Part shown: positions 56,492-64,000 of the stretch, piece after piece | Numbering within the stretch: the first letter of the stretch is position 1 | Layout: every line of letters starts with the position of its first letter | Assembly (NCBI GenBank): GCA_038363925.1 | Contig: JAQQWL010000009.1 | Location: 310,001-374,000, forward strand | DNA from: Apiospora phragmitis | Lineage: Eukaryota > Ascomycota > Sordariomycetes > Amphisphaeriales > Apiosporaceae | DNA length: 64,000 bases | Direction: 5' to 3' | The notes under the pieces: generated by a model | What the model saw: only the letters and a program-made list of their open reading frames with translations | The model's database searches: none | Told to the model about the DNA's origin: nothing | Translations under genes and position numbers: made by a program

Positions 56492-57167
56492 TTATGTCGC
56501 TCCACCTTGCATCAATTCCTTCTCCAGGCGCTCAAGAAGCCTGTCTGTCACCGACGCATCCACGCGTGCATTGATACCTGTATTATATGCCCCTTTTAGC
56601 TACTCATCCTTCGTTTATCAAGGCGAAGTAAAGGAAAGTGGATAAGCATGAAATGTGCACGACTCACGTTTTGCTGCCCCCAATAGAGCCTCCCGTGATT
56701 GAACCATTGCGTCTATGCCCCTTTGTCCAATGATGGGATCCTTGCACCGGGGGCCGATATCAACATCGAAGTCCTCCCTCTGCACCGTCTCAAACCCGGC
56801 CTCCTCCAGCCAGCCGGCCAAGCAGTGGGCAAAGTCATCGGTGGTACTGACGGCATTGAAGGCGGCTCGAATGAGGGTCAGGGTATCGCGCATAGCTTGC
56901 CCTCCATGGACAGGCTCCCGTGCATTTCCGCTGGCCACTTCTCTGCCAGGTTGTGGACGGCAAACGATGTGTGCTCAGAGTGCGCTGGGGAGGAAGAAGG
57001 CCGGCATGATGTCGAAGCCGGCCAATGTGAAGGGAGAGGTGAGCTGGCCTTCGATGGAGCGCAAGAACAATCCTAGCCCAGTATCTAGGCTAATGCCTTA
57101 CCTGGTAAATACACCTGGAGTTTCAATACCGGAAAGCGAGTCTGTTAAAGGACGCCTGTGCTATACG
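56492..57167 (-). pseudogene. SAM-dependent methyltransferase relic
   Basis: Reading the minus strand from 57167: AQASFNRLAFR, then (after an in-frame TGA and a shift) LDTGLGLFLRSIEGQL resembling SAM motif I (DxGxG), TLAGFDIMPAFFLPSAL (motif II-like GFDI). A frame shift leads to FAVHNLAEKWPAEMHGSL, then a gap where the rest of the Rossmann core should be. Then comes DTLTLIRAAFNAVSTTDDFA, with LAGWLEEAGFETVQREDFDV, DPIIGQRGIDAMVQSREALL and a C-terminal exon INARVDASVTDRLLERLEKE ending at 56492 after a 90-nt intron (56578-56667). The layout matches fungal class I small-molecule methyltransferases, but stops, at least two frame shifts and a missing central segment make it non-functional. A second, inverted copy of its 5' piece lies at 58747-58853. 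Confidence 0.78.
57075..57167 (-). repeat. left arm of inverted duplication (methyltransferase 5' fragment)
   Basis: The reverse complement of 57075-57167 (AACGTATAGCACAGGCGTCC...) aligns with plus-strand 58747-58853 (aacgtatggcacaggcgtcc...) over about 95-105 bp, with mostly transition-type differences. The two arms flank about 1.58 kb containing an introner-like copy and one intact open frame. Confidence 0.8.
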
Positions 57168-57177
57168 TTCTTTTAAC

Positions 57178-57346
57178 CTCTCGATTCTCGGCGTTAGCAC
57201 TACTCTTTTTGGAAGAAACGGGATGTCTTAGGAGGGAATAATAAAGGCAACTCCTGGAGTAAACGGAGACCCCCCCTCCTTAGACACTGGGATAACGAGG
57301 AATAACTACTGGAATAGGCAGGAATAGACCCTAAAAGTCTATCCAC
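57178..57346 (-). mobile_element. introner-like element, copy B (diverged)
   Basis: 169 bp that align end to end with the GH115 intron at 61245-61411: shared blocks are ctcggcgttag, ctctttttggaa, gggatgtct.aggaggg, gacactgggataacgagg and ggaatagg.aggaata. On the minus strand it ends GCTAACGCCGAGAATCGAGAG, keeping a branch-point-like CTAAC and a terminal AG. The AG is followed at once by L-K-E-R-I-A-Q-A-S-F of the methyltransferase relic, so it sits where an intron of that gene would be, in sense orientation. The donor end reads GTGGAT instead of GTAAGY, so splicing competence is doubtful. Confidence 0.8.
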
Positions 57347-58284: not shown

Positions 58285-58746
58285 TGTCCTAAATGTCGTG
58301 TTCGAGGTCGTAAAAGTTTAGTAGGGTTGAGATAGTAATGTTGAAGCTTGCGGGGGGGATGTTCAAAATAAGATGGAGAGGGACTCGAGGCGGTTAAATA
58401 TGTTGCAGAAACCGACTGTTGAGATGGGCACATGTCCTTCAGAGCATGCAATTTGCTCGATCCGGAGTCTTGTCCGTGAATATCGTTGACAGAAGCTGAA
58501 AAGCACATGTGTATGTCCAGCCAGGTAGGTACGCGTGACAGGGACCGAGCTACATGTACCTTCTGAAGAGATTGACATCTCAAGAGGAACATCAGGAGCG
58601 AGCGCCCCTCGCTCCCCGCCTCAAAGCGCAAAAAGACCAGGAAATGGTACTCGAGACAGCATGGTAGTTGGCTCAAACTATTGCCTATCGCAAAGTTCGA
58701 TTTATAACCTTGGGATGACTTGCATACATAAGCAACCTTTGAAATA
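58285..58746 (-). promoter_or_regulatory. putative promoter/leader of the 144-aa gene
   Basis: Reading the minus strand toward 58284: a TATTTAACC element (about 58392-58400), then CCTCGAGTCCCTCTCCATC (pyrimidine-rich), then a C-run, CAACATTACTATCTCAACCC and the ATG. No other gene is visible. Assignment rests on composition only. Confidence 0.35.
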
Positions 58747-58853
58747 ACGTATGGCACAGGCGTCCTTTGACAGACTCGCTTTCCGGGATTGAAGCTTCAG
58801 ATGTATTTACTAGGTAAGGTATTTGCCTCCATAGATGCTGGGCAGGTACTTGA
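58747..58853 (+). repeat. right arm of inverted duplication (methyltransferase 5' fragment)
   Basis: Plus-strand partner of 57075-57167. It carries the same AQASF(D/N)RLAFR coding trace followed by a TGA at the same codon, so the stop arose before the duplication. It keeps the same following ATTTAC.AGGTAAGG block. Confidence 0.8.
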
Positions 58854-59178: not shown

Positions 59179-62100
59179 CTACCACCAGTAATCCCGCCCA
59201 CCACCGAAGCCTGCCCCGCGAAACTCAACCCCCCCCCCCCCCTCGAACGCCCCCCGCTCATCCCGCCCCACGCGGAAGCTCTCGGGCGGCCCCAGGTAGC
59301 TCGGCCTCTCACCCCCGAGGTCGACGACGATCTTCTGGACAACCACACTAGGCGCCAGCCCCCAGACCCGGAGCGTGTGCGCGCCCTCCCGGGTGATGTT
59401 CCACGTCGTCGTCGTGTTGTGGCTCGCGTGGCGGCCCCAGACGGCGTCGGCGACGGCGGCCCCCCAGCCGGGCGGCATGTCCTGGCCCACGCTGTCGCCG
59501 ACGAAGGCCCGGGTCTGGATGATATTGTCCTGGGACGACTCCGTCCCGGCACCGGCAGCAGCAGGGGCCAGGGATACGGCGAACTGCAGCGGTTTGCGGT
59601 CCGAGAGGTAGTTCTGCGTCGGGGACAGGTACAGCGTCACGTTGGCCCGGCTCGCGTTGGTGAAGAGGTACAGGTCGTACTCGAGCGCGGGGCCCGTCGC
59701 GGGCGTCAGGGGCGGCGTGTCCTGGGGCCAAAGGGTAACGCCGCCGAAGGTGCGGCCGTAGTTGGCGAGCGTGCGGTATGTTACGTTCTTCGAATCCGAG
59801 TCCGAACTGCTGTTGCTATTGCTTTTGGAAGGGTTGTAGATACGTTGGTAGTTCGGCCCCTCGATGGCGACGTGCTTGTCCGACTCGACGAACCCCGTCG
59901 TGAAGTTGGCGGGCACGCTGCGCAGATTGATGGGGACCTGCACGATGGGCTGGCTGTACCACTTCGTGAAGCCGACGCGCCCGCACCCGGACGTGAAGTT
60001 AATCTTGGCCATGGTGTTATTGACGATCTTCGGCGCGGCGGCCCAGTCCACCGACACGAACACGCGCGAATCCGTGCCGTTCCCGGGCCCGATGGTACCG
60101 CTGGAGGACGACAGCCGTACCCAGGGCGTGTCGACCTGGGCAGACCAGTCGCAGGCTTTGGGACCGCGGGCGAAGACGTCGAACCACCGCGCCGAGGGGC
60201 CGTACGGGTCCAGGGGTGGCAGGGCCAATGTGTTGCCCGAATTGGGGTGGTACTTATCGTCTCCGGGAATAGTGGCATTCGAACCTTCTACGGAAATACC
60301 GATGCTACCTGCCACTGACGCGACAGCGGACTGGACGTACTGCAGTGCTGGGGCAACGTTCCGCATGGGCTGCTGCCAGTATCCGTCAAAGCCAAAGTGA
60401 GTTTCTGTCAATGATTAGCCCCCAGCCCCTCCCCTTCTCAGGTTTGATTGGCAGATTTGCACTTACGGTCCATAATGTTTGCCCATTTGCCGTCAAGAAG
60501 GTCATCCCATCTCCCCGTAAGTTCACCATCGGCATCGAGATCCGACATGACCTCTCTCATGAGATCATTGGCCGAGTTCCGGCGCTGGTTGGCGTACACG
60601 GAGTTCTTCGCGGCGCCAATGTGAACCTTGTGCACAATCTCGCCCCCGAGGATGGGGTGGAGGACCATCTCGAAGTACGCGGCCTTCGACCCCTCGTCCA
60701 GCCCGTCATAGACGCTCTGCGCATCCGCCGCCAGCCGCGCCCACTGCGCCAGCACCGCGTCGGCCTCGTTGTAGTTGACCACAGAATAAACGTGGGGCTC
60801 AACCAACTCGAACTTGCGACGCGCGGCATACATGCCGAACCGCGTCATGATGTCAGCGATGTCCTCTGCAACGTGCTGATCCGTGCTGCCGAACTCGCGC
60901 GCCGCCCACGCCGACAGCCAGTCCCCGACGGCATCGACGCCCCAGCGCTCGGCGTCGTACGCCATGTCCAGGAAGTGGCTGAGCGGCAGCTCGAGCGGCT
61001 TCAGGTCGCCGACGTTGACGATCCATATGCGGTCCGCGCCGTGCGCGTAGGCGAGCTGCATCTGCTCAGCGGTCTTTTCGAGCTGGATCGTGTTGATCCA
61101 CTTGTAGTCGCGCACGTCGCCGACGTAGTCGAAGTGGTAGTACACGCCCGCGCCGCCGGGCCGGCTCTTCTCGTTTGCGATCGGCACGCGGCGAACGTTG
61201 CCCCAGTTGTCATCGGCCCAGAGCAGCGTGATGTCCTCGGGCACCTATCGACTCTCGGCGTTAGTATTGCTCTTTTTGGAATAAAAGGGATGTCTCAGGA
61301 GGGGATAACCCCAACTCTTCGAATAAACGGTGAATCCATCCCCCTTGAGACACTGGGATAACGAGGGATAACGGCTGGAATAGGAAGGAATAATCCCCAA
61401 GAGTCGCTTACCGCGAGGCCGTCCTGGAGGTAGGACATGACCTCCTTGTACAGGCACCACATCTGCGGCACGTTCGTCACATTGGTCTCGAGAACGTCCT
61501 CGATGATGTTCCTCTGGTGTTCGACGAGCGTCTCGAGCATCTCGACTATGACGTCCGTGCCGAGCCCCTCGATGGCCGTGTCGCCGGTGCCCCGCATGCC
61601 CATGGTCCACAAGCTGTTCCTTGTGTACGGTTTGGCGCGCTGGGTCCCGTAGACGAAGTACTCGTCGATGGTCTTGTTATTCAGGTTATAAGCCCACGGG
61701 CCCATTCCCTCGTTGATGTAGAACGTCTGGAACTCGTTCTGGGCGCGCATCATGGGCTCCGTGTGCGAGCTGCCGAGCACGATCTCCCACGCATCCGCCA
61801 GCGGCTGGTTGGCGGGGTCGTCGATCTCGAACATGGAGCCCCAGAGCGCCGGCCACAGGTAGTTGGCGCGCAGCCGCAGCAGCACCTCGAAGACGTTAGG
61901 GTAGAAGTCGCGGTTGTAGCCGACGCCGTAGGGCGTGTCAGCATAGTTCTGGTTCACCCATCCCGACAGACCGGGCTGCTCGTCGTTGAGGAAGAAGCCG
62001 CGGTACTTGACGGAGGGCGGGCCCTGGACTTTACCCCTGGGCAGGAACCAGACGTTACTGTGCTGCTGGACGGCGACGTCGGCCCACCAGTACCACGGGC

Positions 62101-62802
62101 TGACGCCGATCTGCTCGCTGATGTCGTAGAGGCCGAAGATGGCGCCGCGGGGGTCGCTGCCGGCGATGACCACGGCTTTTGGGCAGCCGGGACGGGATCC
62201 TCGACGACTTTCGACACGAAGGACTCCCATTTGCCCTTGATCTCCGAAACGTCTAGCTTGCTGCTGGAGACGAGATCGTCGATGACCTTGGAGTGGCCGA
62301 GTGTGCCGACGATGATGACCGTGTCCTTGGCCGAGGGGTCTGTGTAGTTGGGGCCGTAGAAGTATTCCGTGTTGTTCACCGAGTACTACGAAGAATGAAT
62401 TGTCACAAGGTTAGTTATGCTGTTGCTGACTAGGTACCAATGTATGATCCAACCGCAGCTGTTGTTGTTGTTGTCAGGGTCACTCACAACTGTGTAGTTG
62501 GTGGTGATGGGTCGGTACTCGTATGCAAGCGGTTGCGCGCCGATCTCCCCATTGCTCAAACTGAAGTTGTTCCCCGTGACGCGATCGAAGTCTTTGGCCA
62601 AGTCGCCGGCGGCGCGGACAACGCCCCAGTACTCATTATCCGACACCAGAATCTGGGGCTGGGCGATGGGTCCCCCGGCAAGCTGGAAACCGCCGGGGAC
62701 TTCTTGGAAGCTGATCACAGGCGCTTGGCCTAGGCCAGACACCAGCGACACCGCTGTCGCTGCTATGAGCGACAGGACTGCTCTGGTCAGTTGAACGCGC
62801 AT
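59179..62802 (-). CDS. secreted GH115 xylan alpha-1,2-glucuronidase, one 1-nt frame lesion
   Basis: Exons 62802-62488, 62385-61412, 61244-60467 and 60404-59179; introns of 102, 167 and 62 nt. Signal peptide MRVQLTRAVLSLIAATAVSLVSG, then the GH115 body: PQILVSDNEYWGVVRAAGDL, KAVVIAGSDPRGAIFGLYDI, GVSPWYWWADV, KYRGFFLNDEQPGLSGW, NYLWPALWGSMFEIDDP, AWEIVLGSSHTEPMMRAQNE, DITLLWADDNWGN, then the C-terminal beta domain ending PSYLGPPESFRVGRDE. Restoring one base gives 1,098 codons, a normal full length. The enzyme removes (4-O-methyl)glucuronic acid from xylan outside the cell. The lesion lies between about 62173 and 62192: VVEDPVPAAQK and KAVVIAGSDPRG are in adjacent frames, so one G/C base is missing (real or assembly). 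Intron 2 is an introner-like element. A 14-base C tract (59229-59242) lies in the last codons, so the extreme C-terminus is length-unstable. Confidence 0.9.
61245..61411 (-). mobile_element. introner-like element, copy A: intron 2 of GH115
   Basis: Exactly 167 nt. On the minus strand the exon ..GGCCTCGCG is followed by GTAAGCGACTCTTGGGG and the element ends AATACTAACGCCGAGAGTCG then ATAG before GTGCCCGAGGAC. Removing it restores LQDGLA-VPEDITLLW in phase 0. It has a canonical donor, a perfect TACTAAC branch site and an AG acceptor. About 10-bp terminal inverted repeats (CGACTCTTGG / complement of CCGAGAGTCG) sit just inside the splice sites, and internal complementary blocks (TCTCAGGAGGGG with CCCCCTTGAGA) would fold into a stem. 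The same sequence recurs at 57178-57346 and 63908-64000, so this intron belongs to a dispersed repeat family. Confidence 0.9.
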
Positions 62803-63907: not shown

Positions 63908-64000
63908 GTAAGTGACTCGGGGATTATTCCGTCCTATTCCAGCCGTTATTCCTCGTTATCCCAGGGTCTTAGAGGGTATAGATTTACCGTTTATTCGAGG
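63908..64000 (+). mobile_element. introner-like element, copy C (cut by window end)
   Basis: Starts GTAAGTGACTCGGGGATTAT and continues CCTATTCCAGCCGTTATTCC, TCGTTATCCCAG and CCGTTTATTCGAGG, matching the first about 93 nt of the minus-strand GH115 intron. The donor GTAAGT and terminal GACTC are intact. It is in plus orientation, so any host gene would be on the plus strand, with the 15-bp repeat array as its upstream exon; its acceptor half lies beyond the window. Confidence 0.8.

What the first reader, a model, noticed from the sequence alone, without database searches (positions are those of the whole stretch)
61245..61411. An intron that is a repeat: introner-like element inside the GH115 gene
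Intron 2 of GH115 shares its whole sequence with two other places in the window. It has a canonical donor, TACTAAC branch site and acceptor, restores the frame in phase 0 when removed, and carries about 10-bp terminal inverted repeats just inside the splice sites. Introner-like elements (introns that multiply by insertion) are known from some algae, tunicates and fungi, mostly Dothideomycetes. A TIR-bearing family here, seen three times in 7 kb, would be a new intron-generating element if unrecorded.
Basis: partly seen in the sequence, partly recalled or inferred. Interest (0 to 1): 0.9.

Follow-up and report, generated by a model that had tools for sequence, protein, structure and literature searches.

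The report
Repeated intron family in a fungus
In a fungus probably related to Xylaria, one 167-letter sequence has been copied to about a hundred places, and where it landed forwards inside genes it looks like a working intron, so it is one of the rare sources of brand-new introns; many copies, unusually, seem to lie outside genes.

Summary
Intron 2 of the GH115 gene (61245-61411, minus strand) belongs to a family with about 109 places in its 52.7-Mb genome. The nearest named GH115 homologs are from Xylaria. Copies carry GTAAGC...TACTAAC...TAG and 10-nt near-terminal inverted repeats. With the copy spliced out, nine of 22 sense products tested give one protein alignment running across the join; of 13 antisense copies tested one is unresolved, none clear. 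The GH115 homologs aligned (14) read on through the intron site. No target-site duplication; 43 intact copies favour G|G(T), in open and closed reading frames alike. Copies differ by about 10% from consensus, closest pair 92%: the burst is not recent. Many, probably most, copies lie outside coding sequence. The kind, fungal introner-like elements, is known; I found no record of this family in the papers I could search. Its wide non-genic spread contrasts with what is published for ascomycetes. Likeliest mechanism: excised intron reverse-splicing into genomic DNA (about 0.5); DNA-based movement is the main rival. Splicing itself is inferred: no RNA reads were available.

The parts
61245..61411 (-). 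Introner-like element = intron 2 of the GH115 gene, 167 nt, phase 0
61406..61411 (-). 5' splice donor GTAAGC
   Evidence: donor-end pattern found 57 times in the genome
61397..61406 (-). 5' near-terminal inverted repeat CGACTCTTGG (family CGACT[C/T]TCGG)
61290..61353 (-). Central hairpin (arms 61346-61353 and 61290-61297, extended inwards) predicted in the RNA
   Evidence: 87.7% of cells paired, no covariation
61260..61266 (-). Branch-site consensus TACTAAC
61249..61258 (-). 3' near-terminal inverted repeat CCGAGAGTCG, between branch site and acceptor
   Evidence: 92.3% of cells paired with the 5' repeat over 43 copies
61245..61247 (-). 3' splice acceptor TAG
   Evidence: acceptor-end pattern found 88 times
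62488..62802 (-). GH115 exon 1 (inferred)
61412..62385 (-). GH115 exon 2 (inferred; apparent one-base frameshift near 62190)
60438..61244 (-). GH115 exon 3 (open frame of 268 codons; exact 3' splice boundary not determined)
57178..57345 (-). Second, degenerate copy of the element; start is not GT; no coding frame at its flanks
63908..64000 (+). Third copy, cut by the window end (continues to contig position 374071)

Best explanation
This is an introner-like element: a short sequence that is a complete U2-type intron and multiplied as a unit. SHOWN by sequence: about 109 places; ends that coincide with splice sites; near-terminal inverted repeats; no target duplication; G|G(T) at the insertion site; domains rejoined when it is removed; sense orientation in every clear coding case; homologs of the GH115 gene reading on through the site. 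INFERRED: in coding sequence it is spliced out, so insertions in sense survive and antisense ones do not. INFERRED, less sure: the mobile form is the excised intron RNA, whose complementary ends hold its tips together, and which the spliceosome reverse-splices into genomic DNA at G|G(T), in genes and outside them, followed by copying into DNA. The burst is over; copies now decay.
For: Family size. Rejoined domains across the junction in nine sense products of 22 copies tested (GH115, peptidase S53, TIM barrel, HET, AAA_12, two MFS, Sugar_tr, AUDH propeller; the MFS and AUDH alignments of C9:1971691 and C16:1477346 pass the join by only 6-7 residues). Homologs without the intron. No target duplication, G at -1 in 35 of 43, G at +1 in 39 of 43, T at +2 in 29 of 43: p values. 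Same preference in closed reading frames (25 copies: 19, 23, 17 GT) as in open ones (18: 16, 16, 10 GT), so it belongs to insertion, not to selection for splicing. Among 62 copies with both ends, GT and AG are both kept in 10 of 10 taken as genic and 32 of 52 others. The unit ends exactly at splice sites also in copies without a coding frame, where splicing is not selected. The outermost five or so bases break the inverted-repeat symmetry just where the splice signals sit. In 19 of 43 copies one pair of the terminal stem is U-G, paired as RNA but not as DNA, and these copies multiplied too.
Against: No spliced reads. Reverse splicing does not need the inverted repeats. By a coding-score test the copies are not enriched in coding sequence (5 of 62, against 14.4% of 4000 random window positions; the test missed six of the nine domain-confirmed copies). 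Neighbouring coding segments of non-genic copies are 13 same-strand and 13 opposite-strand, so there is no sign that insertion followed the neighbouring genes' transcription. Copies cluster locally (12 pairs within 10 kb, 2.7 expected), which is more usual for DNA elements. The RNA stem shows no covariation, RNAalifold predicted no pairs on the gappy alignment, and the GH115 copy alone folds only mildly better than shuffles (9 of 200 as good).
Confidence: 0.5

Rival explanations
1. A DNA element (MITE-like or circle-forming) moved by a recombinase acting on the inverted repeats, inserting at GGT or G|G without the usual duplication; it happens to be spliceable in one orientation, so sense copies in genes were tolerated.
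For: Inverted repeats at both ends; many copies without a coding frame; no orientation bias relative to neighbouring coding segments; local clustering; genic and other copies fully mixed on the tree (12 changes for 12 genic rows, shuffled mean 10.6; weak support, 3 of 40 branches). In 43 copies, every one has G before it or GT after it (19 both, 16 G only, 8 GT only, 0 neither; Fisher p 0.015), as expected if a joined-end form ...TAG/GTAAGC... recombines with GGT-like targets.
Against: No target duplication. Ends are not inverted at the tips; they are splice sites. No paired ends further apart than 669 bp and so no autonomous partner at up to 3 mismatches. The 506-bp interior of the 669-bp copy is otherwise unique (one other 49-bp match). 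No serine resolvase domain in the genome (PF00239: 0 matches); tyrosine recombinases were not searched.
Confidence: 0.33
2. Intron RNA is used as a patch in double-strand break repair and then copied into DNA (the model of Fekete and colleagues for Xylariales sister introns).
For: Seamless insertion, complementary near-terminal repeats, insertion possible in and outside genes; published for Xylariales (PMC8469720, PMC12403724).
Against: That model predicts random sites; here G at -1 and +1 are strongly preferred, also in closed frames.
Confidence: 0.1
3. An old ordinary intron of GH115 whose sequence was later duplicated by chance, not an intron-generating family.
For: Only that copies are diverged.
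Against: About 109 places; at least nine unrelated protein domains hold it at their own sites; GH115 homologs read through the site.
Confidence: 0.02

Closest known systems
Introner-like elements of Dothideomycetes (Fulvia, Dothistroma, Zymoseptoria; Collemare et al. 2015, PMC4457414, abstract and introduction read)
   Same: Complete U2 introns in many similar copies in unrelated genes; families may be active or decayed; stable secondary structure or inverted repeats and preference for AG/GY sites as reported second-hand in PMC8469720
   Different: Other fungal class, no sequence comparison made here; here the preference is G|G(T) without A at -2; many copies without a coding frame
[quoted passage not shown] 2021, PMC8469720, most of Results and half of Discussion read; 2025, PMC12403724, abstract, Results and Discussion read)
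   Same: Probably same fungal order; 10-nt near-terminal inverted repeats, the 3' one between branch site and acceptor; no target duplication; seamless new intron positions; functional on one strand only
   Different: Canonical single introns, not nested: no internal AG|TAHGT seen by eye in the consensus; repeats CGACTCTCGG, not GUAUAAAAAC (a strict pattern for the published pair has 0 matches here); published ones show no site preference and sit in genes
Introners of Gozashti et al. 2022 (PMC9860276, abstract and Results/Discussion read)
   Same: Similar introns across unrelated genes; both splice sites carried; families with inverted repeats but no target duplication exist (Acanthoeca)
   Different: That survey reports ascomycete families without inverted repeats or target duplications and enrichment in genes in 161 of 175 genomes; here inverted repeats are present and no gene enrichment was detected
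DNA-transposon introners of Micromonas and Aureococcus (Huff et al. 2016; recalled, and as cited in the papers above)
   Same: Short, non-autonomous, inverted repeats, intergenic copies
   Different: They have target duplications that supply a splice site; here none

Membership tests
Introner / introner-like element | Same sequence, end to end, forms introns in many unrelated genes | tested here: met
   Nine domain-spanning sense products of 22 copies tested, different families
Introner / introner-like element | Copies spliced from mRNA | not testable with these tools
   No RNA reads; only donor, branch site, acceptor and frame restoration seen
Introner / introner-like element | New positions, absent from orthologs | tested here: met
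   GH115 only: 14 of 14 aligned homologs read on (P0001 with one extra residue nearby); P0001 is a raw genomic frame because it runs on through the next intron out of frame; P0018 is an annotated model and cannot tell
Xylariales sister stwintron | [D1,2] nested structure with internal AG|TAHGT | tested here: not met
   Not seen by eye in the consensus; one-step removal restores the frame
Xylariales sister stwintron | NTIRE-10 pair GUAUAAAAAC / GUUUUUAUAC near the ends | tested here: not met
   Copies have CGACTCTCGG / CCGAGAGTCG; strict pattern 0 matches
TIR DNA transposon (MITE) | Terminal inverted repeats | tested here: met
   10-nt repeats just inside the ends, 92.3% of cells paired over 43 copies; the outermost bases are not inverted
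TIR DNA transposon (MITE) | Target-site duplication | tested here: not met
   No identical flanks of 3 nt or more in 43 copies; 1-2 nt at chance level
TIR DNA transposon (MITE) | Autonomous partner with the same ends | tested here: not met
   None among end hits at up to 3 mismatches; more diverged ends not searched

The most novel reading that the evidence does not exclude
The first ascomycete introner whose genome-wide, largely non-genic copies preserve the trace of the insertion step itself: the unit is cut exactly at its splice sites and set at G|G(T) even where no splicing could be selected, which would be direct sequence evidence that excised introns reverse-splice into genomic DNA, not only into transcribed exons.
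Probability: 0.3. Interest if true: 0.85.

Novelty: new variant of a known kind. Interest (0 to 1): 0.58.

Why it matters
How spliceosomal introns arise is a long-standing question, and the two main models (DNA transposition and reverse splicing) are usually told apart by target duplications, inverted repeats and gene bias. This family mixes the marks: inverted repeats and wide non-genic spread, but no duplication and a protosplice-like target. About a hundred copies in one genome, in and out of genes, allow the insertion preference to be separated from selection for splicing, which gene-bound families do not.

Tried and rejected
Target duplication at shifted boundaries: an offset scan over 16 x 16 positions and five lengths gave one outlier (a 4-mer in 3 of 43 copies, 0.26 expected), which I take as multiple testing. 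A fixed GGT duplication was rejected because 24 of 43 copies lack it on one side. Stwintron reading: rejected (see membership test). Covariation in the stems: none beyond shuffles; RNAalifold found no pairs. Rfam: no match in 60500-62300. Serine resolvase: none. Published Xylariales repeat pair: none. 3' end pattern in viral contigs and in bacterial/archaeal genomes: 0. GH115 paralogs without the intron: only the gene itself was found. Empty sites within held DNA: no hit spans a junction. RIP: C-to-T in CpA is only slightly raised (0.101 against 0.067-0.083 in other contexts). Relatives of the genome: none held. Papers: searches; supplements, where family lists would be, could not be opened, so absence from print is not shown.

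Full report
What is there. The GH115 gene lies on the minus strand. Its intron 2 (61245-61411) runs from GTAAGC to TAG with TACTAAC 15 nt before the end. Without it the frame continues in phase 0 and one Pfam GH115 match crosses the join. Fourteen homologs, the nearest 86% identical, read through the same place; P0001 is an open frame of raw DNA, since it runs on through the next intron out of frame, while P0018 is an annotated model and says nothing about introns. I aligned 14 of the 120 homologs listed. The nearest named homologs are from Xylaria arbuscula and X. digitata (75 and 74%), so I take the genome to be from Xylariales; that is an inference from one gene.

Family size. A BLAST search of the whole genome found 107 candidates and scored 40, all matching; a second query added members. 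The 5' end pattern occurs 57 times and the 3' end pattern 88 times at up to 3 mismatches, with no match for the reversed control. Merged, these give 109 places, of which 42 rest on the 3' end alone and 14 on the 5' end alone. In the DNA I could hold there are 74 copies or fragments, 62 with both ends. Shorter versions of 68, 89 and about 93 nt keep both ends and sit in what look like genes (by eye).

Introns in other genes. I joined the flanks of each copy and tested 22 sense products. Nine give one alignment across the join: GH115, peptidase S53 (against tripeptidyl-peptidase 1, without a gap at the join), TIM barrel, HET, AAA_12, two MFS transporters, a sugar transporter and an AUDH propeller; in C9:1971691 (MFS) and C16:1477346 (AUDH) the alignment passes the join by only 6-7 residues. 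Tannase has two matched stretches of which only one, before the join, is printed. Two more matches end at the join (C4:238991, C7:1375725). Ten gave no match over Pfam's cut-off. Of 13 copies tested in antisense, chosen for an open frame, one matched: a domain on the other strand that ends 18 residues before the join; I left it unread. Ten further copies with an antisense frame belong to the genic list and were not tested in antisense. Nine to none has a chance of 0.002 under random orientation, nine to one of 0.011.

How many copies are outside genes. A coding-score test of 62 sense, 0 antisense, 57 neither; 14.4% of 4000 random window positions and 9.7% of 2100 positions near copies are called coding. 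The test is weak: it missed six of the nine domain-confirmed copies. From another side, 27 of 62 copies have no sense frame of 90 codons across the join (35 have one, and 23 have one in antisense). So at least nine copies are genic, and many, probably most, are not; an exact share needs gene models. Among copies not counted as genic, neighbouring coding segments are 13 on the same and 13 on the other strand. Copies lie closer together than chance (12 pairs within 10 kb, mean 2.7, at most 8 in 1000 shuffles).

Insertion site. In 43 copies with GT and AG at their ends, no identical flanks of 3 nt or more exist; one and two nt are at chance level. G precedes in 35, G follows in 39 and GT follows in 29. 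None lacks both the G before and the GT after (19 both, 16, 8, 0; p 0.015). The preference is the same in 25 copies without an open frame as in 18 with one. It is therefore a property of insertion.

Age and lineage. Copies differ by 4.8-19.6% (median 10.4%) from consensus; the closest pair is 92% identical. On a tree of 43 copies the 12 rows labelled genic need 12 changes, so there is no separate intron lineage; three of these labels rest on my reading alone, and only 3 of 40 branches are well supported.

Structure. The consensus folds better than shuffles (z -4.2), the GH115 copy only mildly (z -1.7). The terminal stem is paired in 92.3% and the central one in 87.7% of cells, without covariation: the pairing is inherited and decays, so it may matter for movement but not for staying. 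In 19 copies one terminal pair is U-G.

Mechanism. The unit ends at splice sites even where no coding frame is present, the target resembles a protosplice site, and nothing is duplicated. That fits reverse splicing of the excised intron into DNA. Inverted repeats, wide spread and clustering fit DNA movement. I give 0.5 and 0.33. A joined-end form recombining at GGT would explain why each copy has G before or GT after it.

What is known. [quoted passage not shown] PMC8469720 and PMC12403724 describe sister stwintrons and cropped introns in Xylariales with near-terminal inverted repeats of about 10 nt, without duplications, in genes and at random sites. The present family shares the architecture, not the sequence nor the nesting.

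Noticed in passing
window ~62190 (exon 2 of GH115): Apparent one-base frameshift in the GH115 gene beside a run of G; it may be an assembly error or a real mutation. A similar shift seems to lie in the MFS gene at C9:1971691.
   Followed up: partly
window 57082-57176 and 58739-58833: Inverted repeat of 95 nt, 86% alike, 1562 nt apart; one arm abuts the degenerate copy at 57178-57345, the other arm has no copy beside it.
   Followed up: partly
L044 (G000:C13:2942404-2943072): A 669-bp copy with both family ends and a 506-bp interior that is otherwise unique in the genome apart from one 49-bp match.
   Followed up: partly
L092 (G000:C11:1422864-1423426): Two copies head to tail with nothing between them, as if one had inserted at the edge of the other.
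   Followed up: partly
L074 (G000:C11:3306948-3307114): By eye, a copy sits in a gene resembling a POLQ-like helicase; Pfam gave no match. PMC8469720 mentions a stwintron in such a gene in Hypoxylaceae.
   Followed up: partly
L033, and L084 (G000:C2:2819740-2819828; C4:2814942-2815009): Deletion derivatives of 89 and 68 nt still keep donor, acceptor and an open frame across the join; the first sits, by eye, in a P450 gene beside an ordinary intron.
   Followed up: partly
genome-wide: Two subfamilies (C or T at position 11 with GGAT or GGT[C/T] further in) both multiplied.
   Followed up: no
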